Under the pieces are notes generated by a model. It had not been told where the DNA came from and made no database searches. It worked only from the letters and a program-made list of their open reading frames with translations. A DNA stretch of 64,000 bases from Protonemura montana (taxonomy: Eukaryota > Arthropoda > Insecta > Plecoptera > Nemouridae): positions 16,109,701-16,173,700 of the forward strand of contig OX387607.1 in assembly GCA_947568835.1 (NCBI GenBank). The letters run 5' to 3'. Both the position numbers and the translations under genes were made by a program. Shown in pieces: positions 1,886 through 63,905 of the stretch (positions are counted from its first letter, which is position 1; every line of letters begins with the position of its first letter).

Positions 1886-2499
1886 TTATTATTATTATTA
1901 TTTGTGGTGTTTAACGATGCACTGTTTTGACGGCTGGTCATGCGGCACTGGTCTAATGGCGTCGGTGAATGAGTGGATGATGATGAGCCTAACCTAGCCT
2001 AGAAGAGAGGAGGGGAAACCCGGTGTCGGCACGTAGCCTACTCCTGTCGAAGACCAAGGGGACCATCGGCTTAACGTCCCTTCCGAAGGACGGTACAACT
2101 CGAACAACAGGATTCCTCCACAAATCCATGCTGTCGAGAGGTTGATAAGCAAGGCGAATGAAGTTGCTGTACTAACTTTCATCCCTCCAACCTCTCTCCC
2201 GAACAGAACTGGTCATGTTTTTGATGGTCACCCATTCAATACCTGACTCAGCGCAGTTTTGCTTAACTTTCATCCCTCCAACCTCTCTCCCGAACAGAAC
2301 TGGTCATGTGTATGATGGTCATCCATCCAATACCTGACTCAGCGCAGTGTTGCTTAACTCTTATCCCTCCAACCTCTCTCCCGAACAGAACTGGTCATGT
2401 GTATGATGGTCACCCATTCGATACCTGACTCAGCGCAGTGTTGCTTAACTTTTGTGATCTAACGAGAACCGGTGTTTCTAACACGACAAACCGTTCGGT
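1886..2499 (-). mobile_element. Full-length 5S rRNA-derived SINE, three 91-bp units
   Basis: Read on the - strand, the element starts at 2499 with ACCGAACGG and a 5S rRNA-like head. The 5S internal promoter is recognisable: box A-like 'AGTTAAGCAACACTGCG' and box C-like 'GGATG.GTGACC'. The segment from GTTAAGC to the next GTTAAGC is 91 bp and occurs three times. A unique body of about 290 bp follows, ending '...gcatcgttaaacaccaca' and an (AAT)n-type tail. The perfect 12-bp duplication atgccacttcaa at 1874-1885 and 2500-2511 fixes both ends and shows retroposition. 5S-headed SINEs (SINE3 class) are transcribed by Pol III and mobilised by a partner LINE; the TAA-type tail suggests a LINE ending in the same way. 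No LINE is in the window. Confidence 0.85.
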
Positions 2500-6023: not shown

Positions 6024-6544
6024 AATTTGTAGTGTTTAACGACGCATTGTTTTGACATCTGGCCATGCGGCACTGGTCTAATGGCGTCCGTGAATGAGAG
6101 GATGATGATGAGGATGATGATGAACCTAACCTAGACTAGAAGGGAATAGGGGAAACCCGGTGCCGGCACGTAGCCTACTCCTGTCGAAGACCAACGGGAC
6201 CGCTGTCTTAACGTCCCTTCCGAAGGACGGTACAACGCGAACAACAAGATTCCTCCCCAAATCCATGCTGTCGAGAGGTTGATAAGCAAGGCGAGTAAAG
6301 TTGCTGTACTAACTTTCATCCCTCCAACCTCTCTCCCGAACAGAACTGGTCATGTGTATGATGGTCACCCATCCAATACCTGACCCAGCGCAGTGTTGCT
6401 TAACTTTCATCCCTACAACCTCTCTCCCGAACAGAACTGGTCATGTGTATAATGGTCACCCATCCAATACCTGACCCAGCGCAGTGTTGCTTAACTTCGG
6501 TGATCTCACGAGGACCGGTGTTTCCAACGCGCCAAACGTTCGGT
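6024..6544 (-). mobile_element. 5S rRNA-derived SINE, two 91-bp units
   Basis: Same family and orientation as 1886-2499. The 5S-like head begins at 6544 (ACCGAACG on the - strand) and has box A-like 'AAGTTAAGCAACACTGCGC' and box C-like 'GGATGGGTGACC'. Repeated boundaries at 6311, 6402 and 6493 give an exact 91-bp period and two units. The body then runs to 'cgtcgttaaacactacaaa'. I could not find a convincing target-site duplication, so the left end is approximate. Confidence 0.8.
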
Positions 6545-12759: not shown

Positions 12760-13859
12760 ACCGAACGGTTTGCCGTGTTGGAAATACCGGTTCTCATAAG
12801 ATCACCGAAGTTAAGCTACACTGCGCTGAGTCAGGTACTGGATGAGTGACCATCATACACATGACCAGTTCTGTTCGGGAGAGAGGTTGGAGGGATGAAA
12901 GTTAAGCAACACTGCGCTGGGTCAGGTATTGGATGAGTGACCATCATACACATGACCAGTTCTGTTCGGGAGAGAGGTTGGAGGGATGAAAGTTAAGCAA
13001 CACTGCGCTGGGTCAGGTATTGGATGAGTGACCATCATACACATGACCAGTTCTGTTCGGGAGAGAGGTTGGAGGGATGAAAGTTAAGCTACACTGCGCT
13101 GAGTCAGGTACTGGATGAGTGACCATCATACACATGACCAGTTCTGTTCGGGAGAGAGGTTGGAGGGATGAAAGTTAAGCAACACTGCGCTGAGTCCGGT
13201 ACTGGATGAGTGACCATCATACACATGACCAGTTCTGTTCGGGAGAGAGGTTGGAGGGATGAAAGTTAAGCAACACTGCGCTGAGTCATGTATTAAATGA
13301 GTGACCATCATACACATGACCAGTTCTGTTCGGGAGAGAGGTTGGAGGGATGAAAGTTAAGCAACACTGCGCTGAGTCATGTATTAAATGAGTGACCATC
13401 ATACACATGACCAGTTCTGTTCGGGAGAGAGGTTGGAAGGATGAAAGTTAAGCAACACTGCGCTGGGTCAGGTATTGGATGGGTGACCATCATACACATG
13501 ACCAGTTCTGTTTGGGAGAGAGGTTGGAAGGATGAAAGTTAAGCAACACTGCGCTGGGTCATGTATTAAATGAGTGACCATCATATACATGACCAGTTCT
13601 GTTCGGGAGAGAGGTTGGAAGGATGAAAGTTAAGCAACACTGCGCTGGGTCATGTATTAAATGAGTGACCATCATATACATGACCAGTTCTGTTCGGGAG
13701 AGAGGTTGGAAGGATGAAAGTTAAGCAACACTACGCTGGGTCATGTATTAAATGAGTGACCATCATACACATGACCAGCTCTGTTCGGTAGAGAGGTTGG
13801 AGGGATGAAAGTTAAGCAACACTACGCTGGGTCATGTATTAAATGAGTGACCATCATAC
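12760..13859 (+). mobile_element. 5S-derived SINE head expanded to ~12 tandem 91-bp units
   Basis: A 5S-like head (12760-12809) leads into GTTAAGC boundaries at 12810, 12901, 12992, 13083, 13174, 13265, 13356, 13447, 13538, 13629, 13720 and 13811. Every interval is exactly 91 bp: eleven complete units and a partial twelfth. Each unit holds the equivalent of the 5S internal control region (box A near GTTAAGCAACACTGCGC, box C near GGATGAGTGACC) and then 'tgaccagttctgttcggga'. Later units share variants such as 'gtcatgtattaaatgagtg', so local amplification and homogenisation are likely. The SINE body and tail are absent: sequence after 13859 is unrelated. Confidence 0.88.
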
Positions 13860-17663: not shown

Positions 17664-20600
17664 TTAACCTTATATAAAAGCTTTAAAATTGTGATGTTCA
17701 ACTTTTTAGTTTGTGGGTAGCTGGCTGGGTGGGTGGCTGGGATGTAACCGGCCGCTCTACTGGTTATGGAAATTGCGAAATGAGACTCAAAACGTACGGA
17801 AATGGGCTAGAATTTTTCAGAATTAACTTTTACATTGGCGTGCGACATTTTCACAGCGATTAAAAATCGTTTTCATGGTGAAAAGTTGCTAAATATGACG
17901 GCAAGATATCTCAGAGCCAGGCGATGCAGCTCGATTTTATAACTATTTTAATACTCAAGTTTTTCTAGCCTCGAGCTTTGCGGTGATTTTTCATGCATTC
18001 GTAATAAAGTTGTTGATGTAATTGAGCGAAAACACATTCAATTGCGATCGTTTTACGTGAAAAAGAATTAATTTTGCTAATCAACTGACAGCTTTGATCA
18101 ATTGTTTGCTTTTTTGACACCACGGCAAGGTGTACGAAATCGTGAATGTATCTTTTCGGCAGTGCATTCAGGAAATTCAAACGTCAAATTTAAACGTCAA
18201 AGTCAACGTCAATGTCAAATTCAATTTCAAAATCTCCAAAACTGAACGGAAAACGTGTGAAATTGGCTTCAATTGTTCAAATACAGTTCAACATCCTGCT
18301 ACGTCTTTTTCACGATGATTTAAAAGTGTTTTAGTATAGTAAAGTATCAAAAATATTGTTGGTGTTCGGCTATCAAGATACAAAAGAGTCACATGATTGA
18401 TCTCGACATTGTATGGTATTGTATATGATTATATTATACTGCATGGTATTGTATGGTATTTTATTGTTATGTATGGTATTCTTTGGTATTGGATGTTTTT
18501 GGATGGTATTTAATATTATTGTTTGATATTGTATGGTATTGAATGAAAATGTATAGTATTCTTTAGTATTCGACAGTATTCTATGATATTCTATGGTATA
18601 TTTTGGTATTCTATGGTATTCTATGGTGTTCTTTGGTGTTCTATGGTGTTCTATGGTGTTCTATGGTATTCTATGGTATTCTATGGTATTCTATGGTATT
18701 CTATAATATTCTATGAATTTCTATGGTATTCTATGGTATTGTATGGTATTGTATAGTATTGTAAGGTATTCTAAGGTATTCTTTGGTATTCTATGGTGTT
18801 CTATGGTGTTCTATGGTGTTCTATGGTATTCTATGGTATTCTATGGTATTCTATGGTATTCTTTAATATTCTATGAAGTTCTATGGTATTCTATGATATT
18901 GTATGGTATTGTATGGTATTGTATGGTATTCTATGGTATTCTATGGTATTTAATGGTTTTCTATGGAGTAATATGGTATTATATGATATTGTATGGTATT
19001 CTATGGTATTCTATGGTATTCAATGGTATTCTATGGTATTTTATAATATTCTACGGAGTTCTATGGTATTATATGGAGTTAATGGTATTCTATTGTGTTC
19101 TATGGTGTTCTATGGTGTTTTATGGTATTCTATTGTGTTCTATGGTGTTCTATGGTATACTATGGTATTCTATGGTGTTCCATGGTGTTCTATGGTGTGC
19201 TATGGTATTCTATGGTATTCTATTGTGTTCTTTGGTATTCTTTGGTGTTCAATGGTATTCTATGGTATTCTACGGTATTCTATGGTATTCTATGGTATTC
19301 TATGGTATTTTATAATATTCTATGGTATTCTATGGAGTTCTATAGTATTCTATGATATTGTATGGTATTCTATGGTATTCTATGGTATTCTTTGGTATTC
19401 TATGATATTCTATGGTATTCTATGGTGTTCTATGGTATTCAATGGAGTTCTATGGTATTCTATTGTGTTATATGGTGTTCTATGGTATTTAATGGTATTC
19501 TATGGTGTTCTATGGTATTTAATGGAGTTCTATGGTATTATATGATATTCTATGGTATTCTATGGTCTTCTATGGTATTCTATGGTATTCTATGGTAAGC
19601 TATGGTATTCTATGGTATTCTATGGTGTTCTATGGAATTCTATGGATTTCTATGGTATTCTGTTGTAATCTAACAATTCTATGGTATTCTATGGTATTCT
19701 ATGGTATTTTATGGTATTTGATGGTATTCTATGGTATTCTATGGTATTCTATGGTATTTTATGGTATTCTATGGTATTCTATGGTATTTTATGGTATTCT
19801 ATGGTATTCTATGGTATTCTTTGGTTTTCCAAGGTATTCTATGGTATTCTTTAGTATTCTATTGTATTCTTTAGTATTCTATGGTATTCTTAGGTATTCT
19901 ATGGAGTTCTTTGGTATTCTTTGATATTGTTTGGTATTCTATGGTAATCCATGGTATTCTATGGTATTATTTGGTATTCTAAGGTATTCTTTGGTATTCT
20001 ATGGTATTCTTTAGTATCCTATGGTATTCTATGGTATTCTTTAGTATCCTATGGTATTCTATGGTATTCTATGGTATTCTATAGTATTCTTTGGTATTCT
20101 TTGGTATTCTTTGGTATTCTATGGGATTCTTTTATATTGTATGGTATTCTATGGTATTCTATGGAATTCTATGATATTGTATGGCATTGTATGGTATTCT
20201 ATGGTATTCTATGGTATTCTTTGATATTGTAGGGTATCCTATGGTATTCTATGGAATTCTATGATATTGTATGGTATTCTATGGTAGTGTATGGTATTAT
20301 ATGGTATTATATGATATTGTATTGTATTCAATGGTATTCTATAGTATTGTATGGTATTGTTTGGTTTTGTTTGGAAGTGTATGGTATTTAATGTTTTTGG
20401 ATGGTATTCTATGAAATTTTATGGGTTTCTTTGATATAATATGGTTCTCTATGGTATTTGGAGGTATTTGATAGTATTATTTGGTATTCTATGATGTTGT
20501 ATGGAATGGTATGGTATTCCATATGTTCCTATGGGTTTCTATATTATTTTATGTAATTTTTTGGTATCCTTAGGTATTTTATGAGTTTCAATGGATTTCT

Positions 20601-20954
20601 ATGGTATAAGAAGATACTTTATGGTGTTGTTAGGAATTGAATGGTATTCGATGATACAGTTTGGTATTTTTAGGTATTCTATGGTATTGTATGGTATTGT
20701 ATGGTATTCTATTGTATTGTATGGTATTCTAGGTCCCCTTTGGTATTGTATGATATTGTTTGGTATTTTATGGGTTTCTTTGGTATTTTATGGCATTTTA
20801 TGGTATTGTAGTGTATTGAATGGAATTTTATGGTTTTCTTCCGTTTTCTTTGGTATTGAATGGTTTTCTATCAAAGAAAACTCGAGACACGTTTAAACCA
20901 AAATGCCCACTCCCTCAAAATCGTAAGGTGCCGTTAGGCATCGGGTACTGCTAG
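17664..20954 (+). mobile_element. Helitron/Helentron-like element A with internal satellite
   Basis: The 5' end 'TTAACCTTATATAAAAG' at 17664 recurs at 20955. The 3' end '...GGGTACTGCTAG' at about 20942-20954 recurs at 21861-21872. Both 3' ends finish in CTAG next to a T and are preceded by a short GCC/GGC stem, as in rolling-circle elements (CTRR end after a hairpin). The first ~640 bp (17664-18300) closely match element B. The 3' half of B is replaced here by a decamer satellite. No Rep/helicase coding sequence is present, so it would be non-autonomous, comparable to DINE/HINE elements that carry tandem arrays. The canonical 5' TC is absent, so the class is tentative. Confidence 0.55.
18405..20870 (+). 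repeat. Decamer minisatellite (ctatggtatt)n, ~245 copies
   Basis: About 2.46 kb of a 10-bp unit, consensus CTATGGTATT, with variants such as ctatggtgtt, ctttggtatt and gtatggtatt. Copies are cleanest in the middle and more degenerate at both edges, as expected from unequal exchange or replication slippage. Ten is not a multiple of three and the + strand unit creates no stop, so all three + frames read the same ten-residue cycle (Y-G-I-L-W-Y-S-M-V-F). This explains frames of up to about 220 codons. The - strand meets TAG regularly. I do not regard any of these frames as genes. Confidence 0.95.
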
Positions 20955-34200: not shown

Positions 34201-34945
34201 GTTTTACAATCAGTACACATTTTTTCCAATTATAATAAATGCAATTACATAACTTGCGCACTCAGATGCCACGAGCATCAGACTATTTATCTCTGTCGTA
34301 TATTAAACCGCATTTTCCTGATGCACCATATTTTCTGGGGCCAACACCAATTATTTATATAACTACAGATGCAATCGACTATCAATTAAAAATTAAAATA
34401 CCAGCTAAGCGTCAGCTGATCGACCTAAACGTTCGATTTAATCAACGGAATTTGCTTCTGGAAATTCATTTTGATAACAAATCCTTTCCGGATCTTCCTA
34501 TTTCCATTCGTCCTTACAAAGAAAACAATCAGGATCGGCTTGGACCAATCTAAAGTACAGCCGTTTCACCTGGCGCATGCATTTCTACAGAAATAGTTAT
34601 ACAAAATGTGACATAGCCAAAGCTACAGTTAGTCATTTTTATGCAAATATTTCACTTATTTTATTGATTATTAGAACTTATATAGAACGTGTAACATTCT
34701 AAGCAATCCAGGAACCTCAAGGGCCCTCGAATGGTACTATCTAGCATGCACAACTGGTTATATGGAGGTCCTAAGTATCTTCGTAAAAGCTACCTTTACA
34801 TAATTGTCAATCACGAATCGTATATCAAGGTATTCTAAATTATGTTTGCCTAAAAGTGTATTTGGTAGACAGGTGTATCTCAAATCATCAGTCGAACACT
34901 CAAGCGGTATGACTCGATATACTAACAAAGTACCTTTACTTCCAG
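31299..34945 (+). other. Single intron of Drop/msh (3647 bp)
   Basis: Bounded by GTAAGT at 31299 and 'tacctttacttccag' at 34945. It is a phase-1 intron: one base of codon 287 lies upstream and two downstream. One intron a short way upstream of the homeodomain is the usual Msx structure. The intron holds an 11-bp tandem repeat at 32309-32349 and an AT-rich block dense in TAAT/ATTA at about 33940-34260. A 104-codon frame at 34239-34553 has no recognised domain and no clear splice context. Confidence 0.85.
32309..32349 (+). repeat. Short 11-bp tandem repeat, ~3.7 copies
   Basis: Unit close to GGTGCTGGTCA, with one variant position. It lies inside the Drop/msh intron; function unknown. Confidence 0.8.
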
Positions 34946-35448
34946 AAGGCAACCCACTGCTCCAGGGTGAAGGCGCCCGCCTGATCTTCCCTCCAGGAGC
35001 CCACCACTTGGGACCCCTTCCAGCCGCCGCCGTCCGTTGTACCCTCCGCAAGCACAAACCAAATCGCAAGCCGCGCACGCCGTTCACCACACAGCAACTT
35101 CTGTCGCTAGAGAAGAAATTCAGAGAGAAACAATATCTTAGCATCGCAGAGCGAGCAGAGTTCAGCTCGTCGCTTCACCTCACCGAGACGCAGGTCAAAA
35201 TCTGGTTCCAAAATCGCAGAGCCAAAGCCAAGCGATTGCAAGAAGCTGAAATCGAGAAGTTTCGACTTTCGGCTCGGCCCCTTTTGCCGCCGTCTTTTGC
35301 GCTCTTTGGTTCTGGGGGCCCGGGTTTGGTTCCAGGGAACGTTCCCCCTTTCTTTGCTGCGGCGATGGCGGCTGCTGCTGCCCGGAATCAGCAAAACTTT
35401 TCCATGTTTGGTCATTCCGGTATCATGGGAGCAATGCAGCACCAGTGA
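34946..35448 (+). CDS. Dr: Drop / muscle segment homeobox (Msx class), exon 2 with homeodomain
   Basis: Starts after the acceptor at 34944-34945 and completes codon 287 (AAA, Lys). It ends at TGA 35446-35448, giving a 453-residue protein. The homeodomain spans residues 326-385 (35062-35241). It shows the Msx hallmarks: RKPRTPFTT at the N-terminal arm, [15 protein letters not shown] in helices 1-2, and the recognition helix [18 protein letters not shown] with Gln50 and Asn51, so a TAATTG-type site is expected. CTLRKHKP just before it is also Msx-typical. After it come EAEIEKF, a P/L-rich stretch and an alanine run (AAAMAAAAA). The upstream open part of this frame (34804-34945) is intron. Only one Msx-class gene is seen. 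Confidence 0.96.
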
Positions 35449-39360: not shown

Positions 39361-39536
39361 AGCTAACATTTAAACTGTATTTAGTTCAATTTTACCACCT
39401 TTTTAGATGTTCTAGATATGGATTTGGAGGTCACTACAACCCAAAAAAAGAATTTTCAAAGTTTCCCCTTAAGAATAATTCACAGAGACATTTTATTATT
39501 ATAAAGAATAATAACCTTTCCAAAATTGATGCACAA

Positions 39537-39596
39537 ACTGGGACTCGAAGCCCGATCTTCACCCTTTAATAAGCACGCTGACTCCATTATACCTGT
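39537..39596 (-). tRNA. Isolated tRNA-like segment, probably a relic
   Basis: On the - strand there is an A-box-like start (ggtataatggagtcagcg) and 38-40 bases later a B-box-like 'gggcttcgagtccc'. The central loop reads ttattaa. Stem pairing is imperfect, so it is probably a tRNA pseudogene or SINE head. It abuts a SINE tail motif on the opposite strand. Confidence 0.3.
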
Positions 39597-50400: not shown

Positions 50401-52837
50401 AAGGTCACGTTTCCGTGACAGACCGGTATATACTTTCAAGAAATAGCTTCGTGCTTTTCCTCTACGTCAAGCCGTTTTCATGTCACAAAATCATTACAGG
50501 CCGTTCATTCATGTTAACCTATGCTAAAAACAAATAGGTAAGCCACAAGAATATATCTTTGTGAAACTGACCAAACCATAATCAAGGCTGCTTGTAATTT
50601 CAACAAAATTATTCTGCGGTCGTTTCACATAGCATTTAACAAGGAAATAAAATGTCGAGCACACCGATTTATGCATACAATCTTTAATTAAACAAGAGAA
50701 ATAAATGTTTCCATAAAAACTTAACACGACAAATAATAAATTGCTAAATAACTTGCAAGTGAAAATAACGGTCGCCTATCTTCGAGCAGAAACCATCAAT
50801 TCCGTTTGAATCCATGAAACATTTTTCAACAAGGTCTTCTTTCGTCGGCATCTAATTAGGCTTCAAGCTGAATCACAAACGCTGCAACCAAAATGTTTAA
50901 CTCGGTGTTATTTTAATTGCTCTTGGCGACTGAAACCGGCTGTTTCGGATGGCGAACCGATTGTACATGGCATTTTAACGCGGCATTGCTAAATTTAACT
51001 CGGGATAAACAGAGGCAGGAAAAAAGTGACCACTCGCATCTAGCGAATATCTGAAATCATTTGGCAAGAAGTTCCAATTCCTTTTAAAAGTCGCATCTAA
51101 TTTCCGTTCATGACAAATTGCATTAGCATCTTAATTAGAGTTTTATTTCTGTCCTGTACAATCATACTTTATCACTGAGTACAACTTCTATCAGTCTGTC
51201 TATTTGGCTTATCATCGTCCGGTACATGCCAAGAATCATAGTAACTACCATCGACATAGACCGTGTTTAAATATCAATTGAAACATTTGGTTTGATTTCC
51301 AATTCTCCACAGAAGATGCTGAAAGATCTCTGATTTAACTTATTAAAGAAAACTAAAAAAAAACCCATTTAAAGACGCAACCCTCAATTCAAGCCCGGCG
51401 CCTCCACCCAAGTTGTTGTAACTGTATTTTCTATGTCTAGATTCGATGGTTTTAATGTTCCCAACATTTAACAACTCATATTGAACGGTTGAGCGACACA
51501 AAATAAAGCGTACAGTTTCATCCACTTTCCTTCCAACTCATTTCTCTGGTATATGTTTCCTTTGAGAATAGTAGTGAGATTCCAGTAGCCATGAGCTAGA
51601 AACCACCTCGTAAATTCTGCCCCTTATCGCGGGTCGCCTTTTTTAAGGGCCTCAAACCAATTGGTACCCTCAGACCATTACGCTACCGTAGAATTCATCG
51701 CCAGCCTTGTTCAGAAGATATATACTAACAATTCGTTGGCAAATAAAAAAAAATACAAAAATTGTGGCCATAGTCCATGGTCGATGAAGAATACTATTTT
51801 CCGCCACACCCGAATTGCCGCTGGTATTGCGGGCTCGCAAGGAATGTCATTTGGAAATCTATTCCCGTTATGGCTGACCATTTCGATTCACCAAGCCATG
51901 ATATATAAGTTGTGTTTGTTTTGCGTCCATCTTTTCTCCAGCTCTGTCAGTCTTTGTAATTCGGCGCTAAAAAATAACAACCGTTTTACGTTTGTGTCAG
52001 ATTCAGTTGACATTTGCGAACGCGAACAAATGAAAAAGATGATCCACTCTAATCTGACCTAACATAATGAAACATTAAAAGTGTCCTGGCTTTTTCTTCA
52101 AAGTTATTTACAGAATTCTTGGCATTGAACTTTATCCACGCACTAACTTGTAACATATTACAAAGTGCCCAACTTTTTTGTTCATCATCCACAATATACC
52201 TCCATAGCGTGTGTAGGTACACCTTATCGCCAGCACACGTATCTTTTTAAATAATTTATTCTCATTTTATTTTATTGAAATGTTTCTATGCAGTAGCGAT
52301 CCACATAATGAGCTCAATAAATAAAGAGTAGATAGATTAAAGCATCATTATTTTATTAACTCTTGTGGCTTCTTTTCAGGCTGGGTACAAGACTCTGTCT
52401 CCATGTGCTTTCCACCTCGCCGCTAATTGGCCGATAAATCTACCATATAGCGACTTCGGCGAGATAGAAAACTGGCTTCCAACGAGATAACAATGCACGT
52501 TGCCATGGCAGCCAACAGAGAAGGACAACAATGTAACGTTGAAAAGATAACGCCTCGCTAAAGTGGCTAACACTGGTCATTTTTAATATGCTTGTTCCAG
52601 CCGTGACAAGAAATGGGACTAATTAAAAATAAATTATCGTTTATATATTTTTTTGTTAAGAAAGAAGAATTAAGAAGATTGTGGCAAAAAGTGACTTTCA
52701 GGGATTTTCGCTAGCAAATTCACAGAGATAGATAAGATCAAAAAATATGACAGGAATATTCTTGCGTTCAAGAAGTCTTGGTGTTTTGTAAATAGATTTT
52801 AAAACTGGAATTCGTTGTTGCCTTGTGTGGGTTGAGA
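47451..52837. other. Intergenic, nothing supported
   Basis: 5.4 kb of AT-rich DNA with only short domain-less frames on both strands. No RNA gene or tandem array seen. Candidate frames at 49183-49395, 49916-50173 and 51661-52062 lack recognisable features. Confidence 0.45.
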
Positions 52838-53100
52838 TTGTGATATTATAGTGGAGAACTTGCATCTCGTGCCTATCAGTATTATCAGTAATCACGGTTG
52901 AGCAATCACAGCTCTTTTGGATGATCTGGGTCTCTGGTACCAGAGGTTTACAGTTCAACTTATTGTGCCACTCAATTCTGTGACCCCGAGGACTCTTTTA
53001 ATAGGTAACGAAAACATACTGCAAAAGACTTTTATTTTTATTTTTTTAATTTTTCTTTTACAGGATATTTATATAAAATAAACCACTTGATCATTACAGG

Positions 53101-53180
53101 GCAGGTTGGTCTAAAGGTAACGATCCCGCGTTGTAACTGATACCCAGTCTGTTTGATCGGGTTCACATCCGGGCGGGGTT
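53101..53180 (+). tRNA. tRNA-like segment 1 (left arm only)
   Basis: A-box-like 'ggttggtctaaaggtaacga' and B-box-like 'cgggttcacatccggg' at normal spacing. The central loop reads gttgtaa, as in a TGT (Thr) anticodon loop. The anticodon stem does not pair well, so a functional tRNA is doubtful. No counterpart in the right arm. Confidence 0.35.
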
Positions 53181-53639
53181 GGCAATTTTTTTATTTGACT
53201 TTTGGATTTTTTTTTCGAATACACGATTGCACGTGGCGGTGTCAAATTGCAGTGTCAAAATTGTGGTGCTTGAGTGATAGATGTCAAAATTTCAGAACCA
53301 TTGCAAGAAAGTGCAAAAATATACAATGCAGTCGGCGGTTTCGGTGCTGGTTATCAACTGCACATGGTGGTGGTGGTAAGTATAGGAAGACCAAGATGAG
53401 TCAGGTGAGTCAAGAGTTATCATAGAATATCAGCAAACAACAAGTTTATAGCATTTTAAGCGAATTATTATTTAGGAGCTATAATTAAACGCAAATTTAC
53501 AAATATGCAGAGAGAATACTTTCAGCTGATTTCAACTTAATTTTTTTATACAAGAATTCGAGTTAATTTTTAGTGCATGTAATTTACAATTGGGCCCTGC
53601 TTTGCTATTCAAGAATCTGTTATTTTCCATTAATTGTCA

Positions 53640-53721
53640 CCTTGTCTCGATGGCTGGATGAACAAGTCGATTCACCACCGACATCGTCCGACCGTACTGA
53701 GTTCGAATCCCGGGCCTGTCG
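53640..53721 (+). tRNA. tRNA-like segment 2 (left arm)
   Basis: A-box-like 'tcgatggctggatgaac', B-box-like 'gagttcgaatcccggg', then a T-run (ctttttg). The anticodon arm can pair gtcg/cgac around a 9-nt loop. In the T-arm the left copy has one mismatch where the right-arm copy (57681-57761) pairs fully (ctgag/ctcgg). The acceptor ends do not pair. Confidence 0.4.
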
Positions 53722-53805
53722 ACTTTTTGTTCTTCATATATCGGCGACTTTACTTAATTTTTATCGTCAATTTTCCTCATGTGTTTAATAATAAATCCTC
53801 TGACA

Positions 53806-53881
53806 GGCACCGGTTCACGTAGAGCTAATGTATGTTCGTCGTCTGCTATGCGTGAGGTCCGCGGTTCGATTCCCGGCACTA
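53806..53881 (+). tRNA. tRNA-like segment 3 (left arm)
   Basis: Begins 'caccggttcacgtagagcta' and ends with B-box-like 'gcggttcgattcccggc' followed by 'atcttttg'. Its partner in the right arm is 57522-57599. The B-box is nearly canonical, but the anticodon stem is poorly paired in this copy. Confidence 0.4.
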
Positions 53882-54044
53882 TTATCTTTTGTAATCCAAG
53901 ACATTTCATCTGGATCATATTTCTTCTAAGAGACGGTGAGAAAATAAGCCGGAGTAATTTGTATTTTTTTTTTTTTTTTAATATTTTTTTTTTACTGAGT
54001 TATTTACAGAATATATATACAATCTATACCTCTGTATCTTCCAA

Positions 54045-54114
54045 CTGGCTGCTTGGCTGATTGGTAGCGAGCTAGGGACATAATGCAATGGTCCCGGGTT
54101 CAATCCCGGTCAGG
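54045..54114 (+). tRNA. tRNA-like segment 4 (left arm, variable slot)
   Basis: The D-arm pairs as TGGCT/AGCTA. The T-arm pairs as CCGGG/CCCGG around TTCAAT. A long T-run follows (Pol III terminator). The middle resembles a CAT (Met) anticodon loop (acataat), but the anticodon stem is not standard. It occupies the same place between conserved flanks as the very different segment at 57294-57363. Confidence 0.45.
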
Positions 54115-54432
54115 TTTTTTTTTTAAATTTTTTTTGTGGACAGGATGGTACCGAAGAGTTTTCTGATCTTTCGAGTAAAACAATAGCGGGGGTCTGTGTC
54201 AGGGTTGCAGTGCCTGCTCGAGTCACGTGGTCATGTTGGTACTACGGTACAAGACTCTAATTAGTCGTCCACTTTCAAACCCCGACGCCGACACTCGAAG
54301 GCAGTTGTTTAACAAGATGAATGATCTAGGAGCTTTGAGTAATCGATAATAATTAACTCGGAAAATATCTTCTATATCTTCGATACAGCGTTCGAAGTCG
54401 GTTCCGTTTGTTAAAACCCCAACTTATGTCAG

Positions 54433-54502
54433 ATGCTCTTGTAGTCGAGCGGTGAGGCCGTCCGGTTCATGTATGGAAGGGTTCGCGTTCGAGCCCCGGC
54501 CA
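54433..54502 (+). tRNA. tRNA-like segment 5 (left arm only)
   Basis: A-box-like 'tagtcgagcggtgaggccg' (the form seen in Leu/Ser tRNAs) and B-box-like 'gcgttcgagccccgg'. A tccg/tgga stem can enclose a loop with CAT. The T-stem is weak. It is absent from the right arm. Confidence 0.35.
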
Positions 54503-55074
54503 CGTACATGTGATAAGATATTTTTGTTCAGCAGACGTATCAGCATCCGAGTTACCGACCGAAGTCCAGCGTTAATTGACCGAGTACATTTATTATCCAA
54601 CAGGTTGCGCTGGGGGTCACGATGCGTCTTAACACGACTGCGCATTCGGTGAAACTTTATAGATAAGAATAAGTGAAGGCACTGTAACTTTCCATCGGGC
54701 TTTGACTGGTGGTCGTCCAGTCAGTCTTTAAAGCTTGCATTCTCGCGTTGGCTTGATGCAAATGGTGAAAGTCCATATTTTTGGTTGTCCAGTGCCTTTG
54801 CAGTGCCAGGTGTAGTGACCTGATACCTCTGCACTGCTAAGTACCTCTGTGGTCTCTGCCCGTGTTAGTATCTCTGCTCTTTCTTGTGAGGACGAATATA
54901 AATTGTCCGTGACATTTAAAATTGTTTTAAATAGAAAATTTCCTGGTTGCTAACAGGCATGCGGTTCTAAAACGAACTAAACAGAGGGTGCAGTCGATGT
55001 CATGTAGCGACAAGGAAGCCGGATTTTTCAAAATGCAATTCAAAAAGGTTCATCTTTCTCCCACTTCCCTCAAT

Positions 55075-55152
55075 GTTAGCGTGGCACAATGGTACCGTCG
55101 CTGCTTCGAAAGCATCTAAGGTGTCCGCTACCGGGATCAAATCCCGCACGAC
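55075..55152 (+). tRNA. tRNA-like segment 6 (centre), best cloverleaf of the Ser type
   Basis: A-box-like 'gtggcacaatggtaccg'. The anticodon arm gctgc-ttcgaaa-gcatc has a standard 7-nt loop and one mismatch; the anticodon would be CGA (Ser). About 15 bases separate it from the T-arm, as in the long variable region of Ser/Leu tRNAs. The T-arm is cggg-atcaaat-cccg. The ends gtt.gcg and cgc..gac can pair partly. It is diverged from canonical tRNAs, so function is uncertain. Confidence 0.45.
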
Positions 55153-55245
55153 AGAGGAGCTTTTGACTCTTAGTATGCATTTTCCATTTGTGCATTTTCA
55201 GGAGTCAAGAGACTTATATATCCCAAAAATGCCGATGATAGCTTG

Positions 55246-55337
55246 TGTCCACTTGGTCTTGTGGTTAAAGGCACCGAATTCATCGATCACTTGGTCAGAT
55301 GAATGTGGAGATGCTAGGTTCGAATCACGTTCGATCT
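55246..55337 (+). tRNA. tRNA-like segment 7 (centre), Leu/Ser-like A box
   Basis: A-box 'tggtcttgtggttaaaggc' closely resembles Leu/Ser tRNAs, and the B-box is 'aggttcgaatcacgt'. Between them a 7-bp stem attcatc/gatgaat encloses 'gatcacttggtca', longer than a normal anticodon loop. It could be an intron-bearing or degenerate class II tRNA. A close copy lies at 56028-56119. Confidence 0.4.
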
Positions 55338-55403
55338 TCGACGCAGTTTCATACTATGACAACTTTTTTTTCTTTTTCTTTTGGGCGTTTGTTTAAGACA
55401 GTA

Positions 55404-55458
55404 GCAAAACTGCCGGGCGCTCCTGGCGCTTCGCGCCAGTCGCACCCGCCAGTTTTGC
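55404..55458. repeat. GC-rich nested hairpin
   Basis: The outer stem gcaaaactg/cagttttgc encloses further pairing and an inner ctggcg-cttcg-cgccag hairpin (55423-55439). The same hairpin recurs in the direct copy at about 56187-56241. Confidence 0.8.
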
Positions 55459-55469
55459 GGGTTGTTCCC

Positions 55470-55765
55470 ACGACCCCAAACCCCACCTCTACCCCGTGTG
55501 CAGCTCCTAAGTCTAGCACCAAGTATATAGGAACGATAGGTACTTAGTGTTAAGTGTCAACTAGCGCCACCTGTTGGCAGAATTGGGAACTACCCTCTGG
55601 GCTTATTAACATTTTGATTGTTTATGAGACTTGCAGTAGTTCCCAATTCTGCCAACAGGTGGCGCTAGTTGACACTTAACACTAAGTACCTATCGTTCCT
55701 ATATACTTGGTGCTAGACGTAGGAGCTGCACACGGGGATAGGTGGGGTTTGGGGTCGTGGGAACG
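55470..55765. repeat. Inverted repeat inside composite element
   Basis: The segment 55470-55606, with 'cctaagtctagcaccaagt', 'ggtacttagtgttaagtg' and 'ctagcgccacctgttggcag', is followed after about 22 bp by its near-exact reverse complement (55629-55765). Confidence 0.85.
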
Positions 55766-55899
55766 GCTCGCTAAATTGGCGAATGGCGCGGAGCGCCAGT
55801 CGCGGCCGCCAATCTGCCTACCGTCTCAAACCTTTGCCTTAACCTAAAATGGTAAAATTTTACAACTGTTTCGTGCAACATTCGTGAAAGGTATAGCAT

Positions 55900-56400
55900 C
55901 AAAGATATCCACTACCGGGATTAAATCCCACTCGACGGAGGAAGAACATGACTGTTGGAATGCATTTTCCACCCGTGTTAGTTGGAGTCAGGAAACTTAT
56001 ATATCTCAAAAATGCAAACGAAAGCTTGTGTCCACTTGGTCTTGTGGTTAAAGGCATTGAATTAATCGATCACTTGGCCAGATGAATGCGGAGATTCTAG
56101 GTTCGAATTACGTTCGATCCTCGACGCAGTGTCATACTATGACAATTTTCTTTTTTTTTCTTTTGGGCGTTTGTTTAAGACAGTAGCAAAACTGCCGGGC
56201 GCTCCTGGCGCTTCGCGCCAGTCGCACCCGCCAGTTTTGCGGGTTGTTCCCACGACCCCAAACCCCACCTATACCCCGTGTGCAGCTCCTACGTCTAGCA
56301 CCAAGTATATAGGAACGATAGGTACTTAGTGTTAAGTGTCAACTAGCGCCACCTGTTGGCAGAATTGGGAACTACCCTCTGGGCTTGTAAATATTTTGAT
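55900..56400 (+). repeat. Direct duplicate of 55120-55610
   Basis: About 0.5 kb repeated in the same orientation with scattered changes. It includes the 3' half of tRNA-like segment 6 (a B-box-like remnant at about 55912-55940), all of segment 7, the GC-rich hairpin and the 'ctagcgccacctgttggcag' stretch. This duplication enlarged the tRNA-like array. Confidence 0.8.
56028..56119 (+). tRNA. tRNA-like segment 8 (copy of segment 7)
   Basis: The same A-box (tggtcttgtggttaaaggc) and a B-box-like 'aggttcgaattacgt'. Several base changes from segment 7 fall in the middle stem, so one copy at least has lost exact pairing. Confidence 0.35.
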
Positions 56401-56549
56401 TGTTTATGAGACTTGCAGTAGTTCTCAATTCTTCCAACAGGTTCTGCCAACAGCTGTTGGCGACAGCTGGCGACAGCTTCCCTCTGGACTTGTAATACAT
56501 TTTCATTTTTGGGCAAGTGTTTTCTTGTTCGAAGTTAAGAAACAAAAAA

Positions 56550-56623
56550 GCAGCTACGCCGGGAAGCGAACGCTGCACCTCCACGTCACGAAGCACAGCG
56601 CTTACCACATAGCTACGGTCCAC
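56550..56623 (-). tRNA. tRNA-like segment 9 (centre, opposite strand)
   Basis: On the - strand: A-box-like 'tagctatgtggtaagcgc', B-box-like 'gcgttcgcttcccgg', then 'gctgcttttttg' with a T6 terminator. The anticodon and T stems are weak. Confidence 0.35.
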
Positions 56624-56735
56624 GAGATGTCAATGATGCTGGCAATAAACCAACTCAACTGCTTAAGATAGAAATAACGCCCGAACTTTCCAACATCTTC
56701 ACTAAGAATTAACATGTTTTTATTCTTTATAGTAC

Positions 56736-57002
56736 ATGGCATCGACTGCACTCTTAGTAAATTCGGTTGCATACCTCAATCCCGTAAGCAGTCTTACTCA
56801 GCAGGTTTTTTTTGTAGTTATTAAAATTTCACTGACAATTATTATTCGTCCTATCAAGCAAGAGCTAGACCCGGCCATCACACCAAGCAGCGCAGAAGCA
56901 CTTGGCCATTTGCAACAAGCTGACGCGAGAATGCAAGCATTAATGGCTGACTGGAGGACCGCCAGTCAAAGCTCAACGGACGATCACAGTGCCTCCACTT
57001 AA
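56736..57002 (+). CDS. Hypothetical 88-aa frame inside composite element
   Basis: It begins at a true ATG and is preceded by an acceptor-like 'ttttattctttatag' at 56718-56732, so it could be a last exon. The N-terminal half is hydrophobic (VFFVVIKISLTIII). The C-terminal half is polar and alanine/serine-rich, with a helical look (EALGHLQQADARMQALMADW). It ends at TAA immediately before the inner edge of the right arm. I do not recognise a family, and it may be a chance frame. Confidence 0.2.
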   Translation: MASTALLVNSVAYLNPVSSLTQQVFFVVIKISLTIIIRPIKQELDPAITPSSAEALGHLQQADARMQALMADWRTASQSSTDDHSAST

Positions 57003-57293
57003 TCATATCTGTAAAGTTTCACCGAACACGCAGTCGTGTTAAGACGCATCGTGACCCCCAGCGCAATCTGTTGGATAATAAATGTATTCGGTCAATTAAT
57101 GCTGGACTTCGGTCGGTAACTCGGATGTTGATACGCCTGATGATAATCCATGGCCAGAATTATTGACGTCATCACACTGGTTCGGTTAGACTCGAGCACT
57201 GCCTCCCTGACACAGATTACCGCCATTGTTTTACGCGAAAGATCAGAAAACTCTTCAGTACCATCCTGTTCACAAATAAAAAGTACAAAAAAA

Positions 57294-57363
57294 TCTGCCA
57301 GGATTCGAACCTGGGATCTCTTTGCAACGATATCAGCTTGCTACTAATGAGCTGAGCATACAA
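57294..57363 (-). tRNA. tRNA-like segment 10 (right arm, variable slot)
   Basis: On the - strand the D-arm pairs as CAGCT/AGCTG and the T-arm as CCAGG-TTCGAAT-CCTGG, a perfect 5-bp stem with a 7-nt loop. A T7 run follows at once. It is positioned exactly as segment 4 but is only about two-thirds similar to it. The spacer between D- and T-arms is about 3 bases shorter than in a standard tRNA, so the anticodon arm is ambiguous (a GAT-containing loop is one option). Confidence 0.5.
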
Positions 57364-57521
57364 TATGTAATAAGAGAGGTAAAGACTGCATATATATTCT
57401 ATAAATAACTTAGTAAAAAAAAATTTAAAAGTATGTGAGTATACCTACTTCGGCTTATTTTCTCACCATCCCTTCAGCAAAAATATGATCCTGATGAAGT
57501 GCTTTGGATCACAAAATTTAG

Positions 57522-57599
57522 AATTGCCGAGAATCGAACAGCGGACCTCACGCCTTGCAGAAGACGACCATACATTAGCTCCACGTGAACCGGTGCCTG
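57522..57599 (-). tRNA. tRNA-like segment 11 (right-arm partner of segment 3)
   Basis: On the - strand it reads 'caccggttcacgtggagcta' and later 'gctgttcgattctcggc'. The anticodon arm cgtct/aggcg pairs completely here around a short loop containing tctgca, unlike the left-arm copy. Confidence 0.4.
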
Positions 57600-57680
57600 T
57601 CGGAGGATTTATTATTAAACACATGAGGAAAAAATGTCGACGATAATTAAGTAAAGTCGCCAATTAATAAGAACAAAAAG

Positions 57681-57761
57681 CGGACCGGCCGAGATTCGAA
57701 CTCAGTACGGTCGGACGCTGTCGGTGGAGAATCGACCTGTTCATCCAGCCATCGAGACAAG
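57681..57761 (-). tRNA. tRNA-like segment 12 (right-arm partner of segment 2)
   Basis: On the - strand: 'tcgatggctggatgaacagg', the gtcg/cgac stem, and a fully paired T-stem ctgag-ttcgaat-ctcgg. 'gctttttg' follows as a possible Pol III stop. Confidence 0.4.
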
Positions 57762-58068
57762 TTAACAATTGTAGGGAAATAACAGATTCTTGAATAGCAA
57801 AGTAGGACCAAAAAAAAAAAAAAATCTGGTTATTTTTTCGCCATCCCATCAACGGAGTCCTCCGAGTCACAGAATTGAGTGGCACAAGAAGGTGAACTGT
57901 AAAACTCTAGTACCAGAGACTAAGATCATCCAACAGAGCTGTGATTGCTTAACCGTGATTACTGATTTATTGACAGACACGAGATGCAAGTTCTCCACTA
58001 TAATATTACAAACATAAAGAATTGCATCAGCCAAGATACAAATAAGAACAACTTTTCCTGAAAGTTTC

Positions 58069-58101
58069 AGCTAGTTACTAGCTAGTTATTAGCTAGTTAT
58101 T
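58069..58101 (+). repeat. Three copies of an 11-bp unit (agctagttatt)
   Basis: AGCTAGTTACT followed by two copies of AGCTAGTTATT. Confidence 0.85.
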
Positions 58102-59176
58102 AGAATATGTATTATAGTTATGAATTTCTAAACTCTAATTAGTGAGCAAAAACCTTGCTTCTTTGATATCTGCTTGAACGGTGGATATTTTTTCTTGTGA
58201 AACTGTTAAGTCCCAACAATTAAATATTGCAGCAGTCAAGTAACATCTACAAGTAACTTTTTACTAAATATTTGGATCGTTGTTGAAGACATTGATTTTT
58301 ATTTAGTTGTTTCAAAAAATATAGATGTAGAAAGTATATCCAACAATATTTGAGAGTTTTTCCAAAATTTCCAAGTATTTCTTTAATGTTCTTTCCGCAA
58401 ATCTATAACTTGAATAGTTTTTTTTTTTAAACGACTTGAATACGGAACTGTGCAAGCTTGCACCGCTAAAAGAGCCCAACTTTGGAAGGGCATATCTCCC
58501 ACATTAAATGGCAAACAGTTTTTAAAAAAATACTTTTGTGCATTTGGTGACTTGGGTAACAAACTCTGAAAATTTTAAAAGAATCTGAGATGTGAAGGTC
58601 AATATTTTTTCAAAGTGTGTAAGTTAAGATGTAGAATTACCAATATGCTAACAAACAACTTAAAAAAAAAGTGCATACAATCATCCCACAGAAACGCATT
58701 GTGCGATAAGGAATGGTCAATTGACATTTGTATGGACGATTAAAAACTCTTCAATGTTGTAAAAACAAAGTTCAGTGAGATAATTCTTTAGTCTTGGTTT
58801 AAAATCACATTCATTCTTATCTTTCAGTTCTAGTGTAAGTACATTGTAAAATAGCCAGCCTGCATATGAAGGTACTTTCTTATCAATGAAGAGATTTGCT
58901 TTATGTAATTTCAATTGATTATTTTGTCTTGTTTCATGATATGCATTTGACCTGGCTGAAGATGAGCTACCTTCGTTTCGAATTTACAAGATTAAATTGA
59001 AAATATATAAACAAATGATCTTAAAACGTTTAAACAAGGGTCTTTTTATGTATTATTTATGTTTATTATAAATATAACTAATTATTTACATGGGTCTGCA
59101 AGAGTCTTTGCCATGAATCTTATAAGTGCATGCTTCTGCAATTTAAACACTCTTTTACATTTCGATACACTTCCCC

Positions 59177-63117: not shown

Positions 63118-63905
63118 TAGTCTTTGCCTCATAAGGATGGAATATCTGTGCAAGCTTTATCTGTGCTAGTCTTTGCCTCATAAGGATGGAATATCTGTGC
63201 AAGTTTTATCTGTGCTAGTCTTTGCCTCATAAGGATGAAATATCTGTGCAAGCTTTATCTGTGGTAGTCTTTGCCTCATAAGGATGGAATATCTGAGCAA
63301 GCTTTATCTGTGGTAGTCTTTGCCTCATAAGGATGGAATATCTGTGCAAGCTTTATCTGTGCTAGTCTTTGCCTCATAAGGATGTAATATCTGTGCAAGC
63401 TTTATCTGTGATAGTCTTTGCCTCATAAGGATGGAATATCTGTGCAAGCTTTATCTGTGCTAGTCTTTGCCTCATAAGGATGGAATATCTGTGCAAGCTT
63501 TATCTGTGGTAGTCTTTGCCTCATAAGGATGGAATATCTGTACAAGCTTTATCTGTGGTAGTCTTTGCCTCATAAGGATGGAATATCTGTGCAAGCTTTA
63601 TCTGTGCTAGTCTTTGCCTCATAAGGATGCAATGCCTGTGCAAGCTTCATCTGTGGTAGTCTCTGCCTCATAAGGATGGAATATCTGTGCAAGCTTTATC
63701 TGTGGTAGTCTTTGCCTCATGAGGATGGAATATCTGTGCAAGCTTTATCTGTGCTAGTCTTTGCCTCATAAGGATGGAATATCTGTGCAAGCTTTATCTG
63801 TGCTAGTCTTTGCCTCATAAGGATGGAATATCTGTGTAAGCTTTATCTGTGCAAGTCTTTGCCTCATAAGGATGGAATATCTGTGTAAGCTTTATCTTTG
63901 GCAGC
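63118..63905. repeat. 49-bp minisatellite, 16 copies in register
   Basis: Unit 'tagtctttgcctcataagg' + 'atggaatatctgtgcaagc' + 'tttatctgtgc'. 'tctttgcctc' begins at 63121, 63170, 63219 and so on every 49 bp to 63856, with substitutions only and no indels. It sits in the presumed intron upstream of the exon at 62978-63065, starting about 50 bp from its acceptor. Confidence 0.93.

What the first reader, a model, noticed from the sequence alone, without database searches (positions are those of the whole stretch)
52838..58012. Inverted-arm composite element loaded with tRNA-like cassettes
Seen: two long inverted arms around a repeat-rich centre, with about 13 segments that carry Pol III A- and B-box words and often a T-run. 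They are of different kinds (Met-, Ser-, Leu/Ser- and other-like), not copies of one tRNA. Known: tRNA-derived SINEs carry one head, and tRNA gene clusters are not normally embedded in long inverted arms. Inference: this may be a transposable or amplifying unit whose cargo is a tRNA-like array, possibly decoys, translation modifiers or Pol III-driven small RNAs.
Basis: partly seen in the sequence, partly recalled or inferred. Interest (0 to 1): 0.88.

Follow-up and report, generated by a model that had tools for sequence, protein, structure and literature searches.

The report
Inverted-repeat transposon full of tRNA relics
This is one old, damaged copy of a scattered DNA-transposon-like repeat in an insect-like genome whose body is an ordered row of different tRNA-derived promoter-like units instead of genes, a kind of mobile element that our searches did not find described.

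Summary
In detail: inverted arms (74-91% complementary by segment) and tRNA-like cassettes are real. The unit is a dispersed family. The left arm gives 80 matches in the 258-Mb genome (40 of 628 candidates scored); 18 of 25 mapped sequences, chosen for similarity, carry at least 10 of 13 modules in one fixed order.

The element is larger than reported. Copies end in GGGTCATTCCACATCAAACCGG-like inverted termini (66 genome matches, 4 in the reversed control). The window copy reaches about 58643 on the right and lacks its left terminus. Of 12 end pairs, two show exact 4-bp duplications and six show none.

The window holds 15 cassettes. Seven of 12 tested align to the host's own tRNAs better than all 400 background pieces; T0, T1 and T2 do not stand out, and T6 fails when its consensus is tested. 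None is an intact tRNA; T-stems are decayed.

Best reading: a non-autonomous TIR DNA element built from captured Pol III promoter units, its long arms remade in some copies by inverted duplication. No transposase was found; transcription was untestable. A young 5S-bearing TIR family in the same genome hints at a wider habit.

The parts
52838..58643 (.). the element copy as a whole: left-truncated, right terminus at about 58643
   Evidence: arms; outer homology to L014, L020, L025 ends at 58610-58651 and only on the right side; terminus word read
52838..54765 (+). left inverted arm
   Evidence: inverted repeat pairs; 80 genome matches
56906..58011 (-). right inverted arm, part that mirrors the left arm
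58012..58643 (-). outer right arm with degenerate terminal inverted repeat (reverse complement reads TTGGTAATTCTACATC)
52884..52995 (+). module T0, paralogue of T3; not tRNA-like in this copy
   Evidence: T0-T3 z 10.4
53096..53190 (+). module T1, paralogue of T4; A/B-box words, weakly tRNA-like at most
   Evidence: T1-T4 z 7.8
53641..53735 (+). cassette T2 with T-run
53806..53890 (+). cassette T3, Ala/Cys-like
54046..54117 (+). cassette T4, the most tRNA-like consensus
   Evidence: z 11.8
54139..54212 (+). conserved spacer C1
54435..54515 (+). cassette T5
54534..54800 (+). conserved spacer C2a/C2b
55078..55165 (+). cassette T6 (the consensus over copies is not significantly tRNA-like)
   Evidence: z 0.7
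55246..55345 (+). cassette T7, conserved A and B boxes, no nearby T-run in most copies
55364..56442 (.). centre: direct repeat copies 55364-55660 and 56146-56442 with internal palindromes, and a second T6 (from 55894) and T7 (from 56029)
56523..56640 (-). cassette R8, Ala-like
57292..57365 (-). right-arm T4
57518..57603 (-). right-arm T3
57670..57765 (-). right-arm T2
57855..57975 (-). right-arm T0

Best explanation
A decayed, left-truncated copy of a non-autonomous DNA element with GGGTCATTCCACATCAAACC-type terminal inverted repeats. Shown: the family is dispersed, its copies share a terminus and a fixed order of modules, and several modules are tRNA-derived with A- and B-box words and usually a T-run. 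Inferred: a short TIR element captured tRNA-derived (Pol III) units long ago, multiplied them as a block (T2-T3-T4-T5 and its paralogue T2'-T0-T1-T5'), and was spread by a transposase encoded elsewhere. Full-length arms in some copies were made or refreshed by inverted duplication or conversion, since in two copies the mirror symmetry runs past the terminus into the flank. The cassettes most likely act, if at all, as Pol III/TFIIIC promoter units and not as tRNAs.
For: Dispersed copies. Ordered array in 18 of 25 mapped sequences, mirrored arms in 9 of 25. Shared outer end; terminus word 66 matches against 4 in the reversed control, wider word 111 against 0. Short relatives with the same termini, L033, L034, L035. 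Exact 4-bp repeats at L033 and L076, 3 of 4 at L034 and L083/L084. tRNA alignment: 7 of 12 window cassettes above 400 of 400 background pieces; consensus z T4 11.8, T3 7.4, and window R8 7.5. T-runs enriched in 6 of 7 cassette types, box columns more conserved than the rest in 6 of 7, combined p 0.004. Mirror symmetry beyond the terminus in L011 and at C14:4308643/4314141.
Against: No transposase: 0 of 10 chosen element ORFs has a Pfam match, and facing termini were not searched for an autonomous copy. Six of 12 end pairs have no duplication. The superfamily is unassigned. Only a minority (9 of 25) have full mirrored arms. Box conservation is modest (T3 shift-p 0.77, only T6 clearly below 0.05), and spacers C1/C2 are as conserved as the boxes. 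Copies share ancestry, so the p-values are optimistic. T-stem pairing is decayed, and for T3 below its shifted control. C2a and T3 are not more alike within a locus than between loci.
Confidence: 0.6

Rival explanations
1. A SINE nest: different tRNA-derived SINEs inserted one after another into an inverted-repeat element, which was then copied.
For: The cassettes resemble different tRNAs and keep promoter words better than folds, as SINE heads do.
Against: In 20 aligned T3-to-C1 stretches the T4-lacking copies look like deletions (L026 and L027 keep both cassette ends; L022 and L025 lose more than the cassette) and no duplication frames the slot (only T4 was tested this way). All cassettes of an arm point one way in the window.
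Confidence: 0.15
2. Not a transposon: an old repeat spread by segmental and tandem duplication or satellite-like amplification, whose ends coincide with an unrelated TIR element.
For: Tandem versions exist: centre units about 780 bp apart on C12, C5 and C4, about 1.7-kb repeats in L022 and 2.9-kb in L028. Mirror symmetry passes the terminus in two copies. Most end pairs lack target duplications.
Against: Outer homology stops at one shared terminus in many copies, the terminus word is far above control, and copies lie on many contigs.
Confidence: 0.15
3. A host cluster of working Pol III small-RNA genes, duplicated across the genome and kept for its products.
For: Ordered cassettes with conserved boxes, T-runs and spacers.
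Against: Copies are 66-90% alike and often lack cassettes; no known RNA family fits above its cut-off; the termini are TE-like.
Confidence: 0.06
4. A local inverted duplication with box words by chance.
For: No tRNA-model hit in 52500-58400 up to E = 5.
Against: Many copies; sense-strand tRNA similarity in 7 of 12 cassettes.
Confidence: 0.02

Closest known systems
TRIMp3 elements: Helenus (tRNA-like sequence in LTRs), Ajax and Cassandra (5S-derived) (PMC10886601; abstract, outline and passages seen)
   Same: Non-autonomous mobile elements that carry a Pol III small-RNA gene remnant in their terminal repeats.
   Different: Direct LTRs with primer-binding site and one unit per LTR there; here inverted termini and an array of several different tRNA-like units.
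tRNA-derived SINEs (recalled)
   Same: tRNA-derived A/B-box promoter with a decayed fold.
   Different: SINEs have one head and a LINE-type tail and move by retroposition; here many heads, TIR ends, and cassettes lost by deletion.
Foldback-type DNA transposons such as Galileo (recalled; PMC2775673 seen in a search listing only)
   Same: Long inverted arms built of internal repeats, wide size range.
   Different: Arms here consist of tRNA-like cassettes; terminus and possible 4-bp duplication match no superfamily that I could name.

Membership tests
TIR DNA transposon (non-autonomous, MITE/foldback-like) | shared terminal inverted repeats at both ends of copies | tested here: met
   facing termini in L011, L016, L033, L034, L035 and others; the window copy itself keeps only the right one
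TIR DNA transposon (non-autonomous, MITE/foldback-like) | target-site duplication of constant length | tested here: inconclusive
   12 end pairs: 2 exact 4-bp, 2 with 3 of 4, 6 none, 2 not judgeable
TIR DNA transposon (non-autonomous, MITE/foldback-like) | related autonomous copy with transposase | not tested
   only 10 ORFs of non-autonomous copies were scanned, 0 with a Pfam match
tRNA-derived SINE | tRNA-like head with A and B boxes | tested here: met
   for T3, T4, R8 and less so T5, T7
tRNA-derived SINE | free-standing unit flanked by target duplications, absent from sister copies at a clean empty site | tested here: not met
   T4 slot in 20 aligned stretches; other slots not tested
TRIMp3 (Helenus/Ajax/Cassandra) | direct long terminal repeats with primer-binding site and polypurine tract | tested here: not met
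   termini and arms are inverted; primer-binding site and polypurine tract were not looked for
tRNA gene | cloverleaf fold scored by a tRNA model | tested here: not met
   T-stem counts

The most novel reading that the evidence does not exclude
A class of TIR DNA elements in this lineage that repeatedly takes up Pol III promoters (several tRNAs here, 5S rRNA in a second, young TIR family, perhaps a tRNA in a third repeat) and keeps them as working TFIIIC/Pol III arrays that serve the element, for instance by holding chromatin open, stalling forks and so driving the inverted duplications, or making small RNAs.
Probability: 0.2. Interest if true: 0.85.

Novelty: new variant of a known kind. Interest (0 to 1): 0.6.

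Why it matters
Pol III promoters are known cargo of SINEs and of a few LTR elements. An ordered multi-tRNA-like array as the body of a TIR DNA element, beside a separate young 5S-bearing TIR family in the same genome, would show that DNA elements also take up Pol III promoters. It would explain many tRNA- and 5S-like pseudogene hits and offer a natural system to test what TFIIIC-bound arrays do to mobility and to palindrome formation.

Tried and rejected
Intact tRNA cluster: rejected (the relaxed ARAGORN settings gave 19 and 42 low-grade calls scattered over both strands, taken as noise). Protein-coding content: 0 of 10 ORFs, picked by hand from the 45 longest listed, has a Pfam match. Chance boxes: rejected. 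Sub-threshold matches to MIR5998 (74.8 bits, cut-off 180) and other microRNA models at 55530-55699 are taken as an effect of the long central palindrome. The idea that 52843 is the left terminus, because many outer-arm alignments start at query position 6, was dropped when T2 paralogues were found just outside it in other copies (L012, L020, L032) and the shared terminus further out. Host: the Msx-like protein is nearest to insects (best hits Timema, Maniola, Cryptotermes, Schistocerca). A guess of the stonefly Nemurella pictetii was rejected: 20 scaffolds and 257,052,056 bp (passages of PMC9086528) against 34 contigs and 258,480,905 bp. Terminus words in print: of 75 papers holding any of four words, the 15 listed hold only the 10-letter one. 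A scan of viral contigs for the terminus gave one match, taken as chance. General concerted evolution of arms: not supported.
Full report
What is there. The window (G000:C5:16109701-16173700; assembly of 258.48 Mb in 34 contigs) carries at 52838-58011 two long inverted arms, 74-91% complementary by segment, around a centre with direct and inverted repeats. ARAGORN finds no tRNA in the window at default settings. Rfam finds none at gathering and none up to E = 5 within 52500-58400. It does find three 5S rRNA-like stretches elsewhere in the window.

Copies. The left arm gives 80 matches on many contigs (40 of 628 candidates scored; 66-90% identity apart from the window's own, the higher values on short pieces). 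The centre gives 43 (40 of 365 scored) and the outer arm 33 (30 of 30 scored). I fetched 20 stretches of 10 kb around strong arm matches and four around outer-arm matches, so the counts below come from a set selected for similarity.

Anatomy. The window element was cut into 18 modules and mapped with profile searches in those 24 loci and the window. The order X3-T2-T3-T4-C1-X4-T5-C2a-C2b-X5-T6-T7-S, often followed by R8, C2b and C2a in reverse, recurs: 18 of 25 sequences hold at least 10 of the 13 modules in that order on one strand; L015, L021, L023, L029, L030, L031 and L032 do not. Nine of 25 have at least four mirrored module pairs (L009, L010, L011, L016, L020, L022, L024, L028 and the window). 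Several others have one long arm and only C2b-C2a on the far side (L013, L014, L015, L023, L026, L027). The ordered array is thus the more constant feature, and full inverted arms belong to some copies. An outer block T2'-T0-X1-T1-X2-X4-T5' repeats the inner one (T0 against T3 z 10.4, T1 against T4 z 7.8).

The true ends. Comparison of the DNA outside X3 between copies showed homology running outward to a shared point, where copies begin with GGGTCATTCCACATCAAACCGGC-like sequence. CATTCCACATCAAACCGG with up to two mismatches occurs 66 times in the genome against 4 for the reversed control; GGGTCATTCCAYRTCAAAYC occurs 111 times exactly against 0. The window copy keeps a degenerate form of this end on the right, at about 58643, and no homology to the outer region was found on its left. 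Short relatives exist: L033 (about 0.27 kb), L034 (1.7 kb), L035 (2 kb). Of 12 facing end pairs, two have exact 4-bp repeats (L033 CTAT, counted with two further terminal bases; L076 TCAT), two have 3 of 4 (L034, L083/L084), six have none (L016, L031, L035, L077/L078, L079/L080, L085/L086, the last 22.6 kb apart and perhaps no pair), and two (L011, L081/L082) have mirrored flanks and cannot be judged. I could not assign a superfamily.

tRNA-likeness. Of 62 tRNA matches in the genome, 40 were fetched; 38 were oriented by ARAGORN and two (L073, L075) were dropped. Of 12 window cassettes, seven beat all 400 background pieces on the sense strand: T3, T4, T5, T6, R8, right-arm T4 and right-arm T2. 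T7, right-arm T3, T2, T0 and T1 were equalled by 1, 2, 9, 29 and 150 of 400. Majority sequences over copies gave z 11.8 for T4, 7.4 for T3, 3.2 for T5, 2.9 for T7, 2.3 for T2 (its antisense score is higher), 1.8 for T1 and 0.7 for T6; the single window copies of R8 and T0 gave 7.5 and 0.6; two cassettes of L035 gave 5.3 and 6.2, one of them homologous to R8 (z 8.7). T-stem pairing is 2.5-3.5 of 5 against 4.87 in real tRNAs and 1.5-3.0 in shifted controls, and T3 lies below its control: the fold is decayed.

Promoter words. Box columns are more conserved than the rest of the cassette in six of seven types (shift-p 0.018-0.21; T3 0.77, where the script probably placed the A box wrongly; combined p 0.004). 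TTTT in the last 60 nt is enriched in T1 to T6 and not in T7 (4 of 40). Copies share ancestry, so these p-values are optimistic. Spacers C1 and C2 are as conserved as the boxes, which I cannot explain.

SINE nest or built-in? In 20 aligned T3-to-C1 stretches, copies without T4 look like deletions: L026 and L027 keep both cassette ends, L022 and L025 lose more than the cassette, and no duplication frames the slot. Only T4 was tested in this way.

How arms arise. In L011 the two sides are 96% alike over 1130 bp, and the symmetry runs about 340 bp past the terminus. At C14:4308643/4314141 the 25 bases outside the two termini are identical in mirror image. This points to inverted duplication or conversion that does not respect the element's end. 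General homogenisation of arms is not supported: median identity within and between loci is 0.85 and 0.89 for C2a, 0.78 and 0.77 for T3, and 0.94 and 0.80 for T5, the last with only 3 within-locus pairs.

A wider pattern. L027:3436-4222 is a 787-bp element with 169-bp inverted ends (99% alike) enclosing a 5S rRNA-like stretch (62.7 bits; sequence). A genome search gave 161 matches from 40 scored of 1752 candidates, most of the listed ones 96-100% identical. L020:8300-8470 is a repeat with a tRNA-like core (37.3 bits) between short inverted words, with 43 matches from 40 scored of 2041 candidates, nearly all 93-95% identical. These are separate families; a shared cause is inference.

Mechanism and confidence. 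The best reading is a non-autonomous TIR element whose body is an old, internally duplicated array of tRNA-derived Pol III promoter units, spread by a transposase not found here (0.6). Functional tRNAs or decoys are unlikely given the decayed folds. Whether the promoters work is untested.

Comparison. The nearest published kind found is TRIMp3, LTR elements with a tRNA- or 5S-like unit in each LTR (PMC10886601; abstract, outline and passages). The present element lacks the defining direct repeats. Searches for a TIR element with tRNA-like units (listings seen) and for the terminus sequence found nothing, but most subscription papers and Repbase lie outside that library.

Noticed in passing
L027:3436-4222 and many genome places: A young TIR element family (inverted ends of 169 bp, mostly 96-100% identical between copies) enclosing a 5S rRNA-like gene; 1752 first-look candidates, 40 scored.
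   Followed up: partly
window 2173-2452, 6310-6497, 12808-13859: Tandem arrays of a 91-bp unit (3.1, 2.1 and 11.6 copies) that overlap 5S rRNA matches, i.e. multiplied 5S promoter region.
   Followed up: partly
L020:8300-8470; related stretch at window 39490-39563: An abundant repeat (2041 first-look candidates, 40 scored) with a tRNA-like core of 37.3 bits between inverted TCTCAAAA/TTTTGAGA words; parts of it form a tandem array at L011:9431-10000.
   Followed up: partly
G000:C12:6687546-6691755, C5:15139164-15141009, C5:12790074-12791138: The centre unit with T6/T7 occurs as tandem arrays of about 780-bp period; L022 and L028 hold tandem repeats of about 1.7 and 2.9 kb of larger parts.
   Followed up: partly
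outer arms of L014, L016, L020, L024, L025, L028: A conserved GGGAAAAG|GTAAGTAAA ... TTCGTTGCAG|AGAG stretch that looks like a short intron with both splice sites; unexplained in a non-coding element.
   Followed up: no
window 18443-20871: A 2.4-kb array of a 10-bp unit (243 copies, 77% matches) with strong G and T bias on the + strand (GC skew 0.35 and 0.20).
   Followed up: no
window 63118-63897: Tandem array of a 49-bp unit, 15.9 copies, 95% matches.
   Followed up: no
window 34804-35448: Msx-type homeobox exon, nearest to insect proteins.
   Followed up: partly
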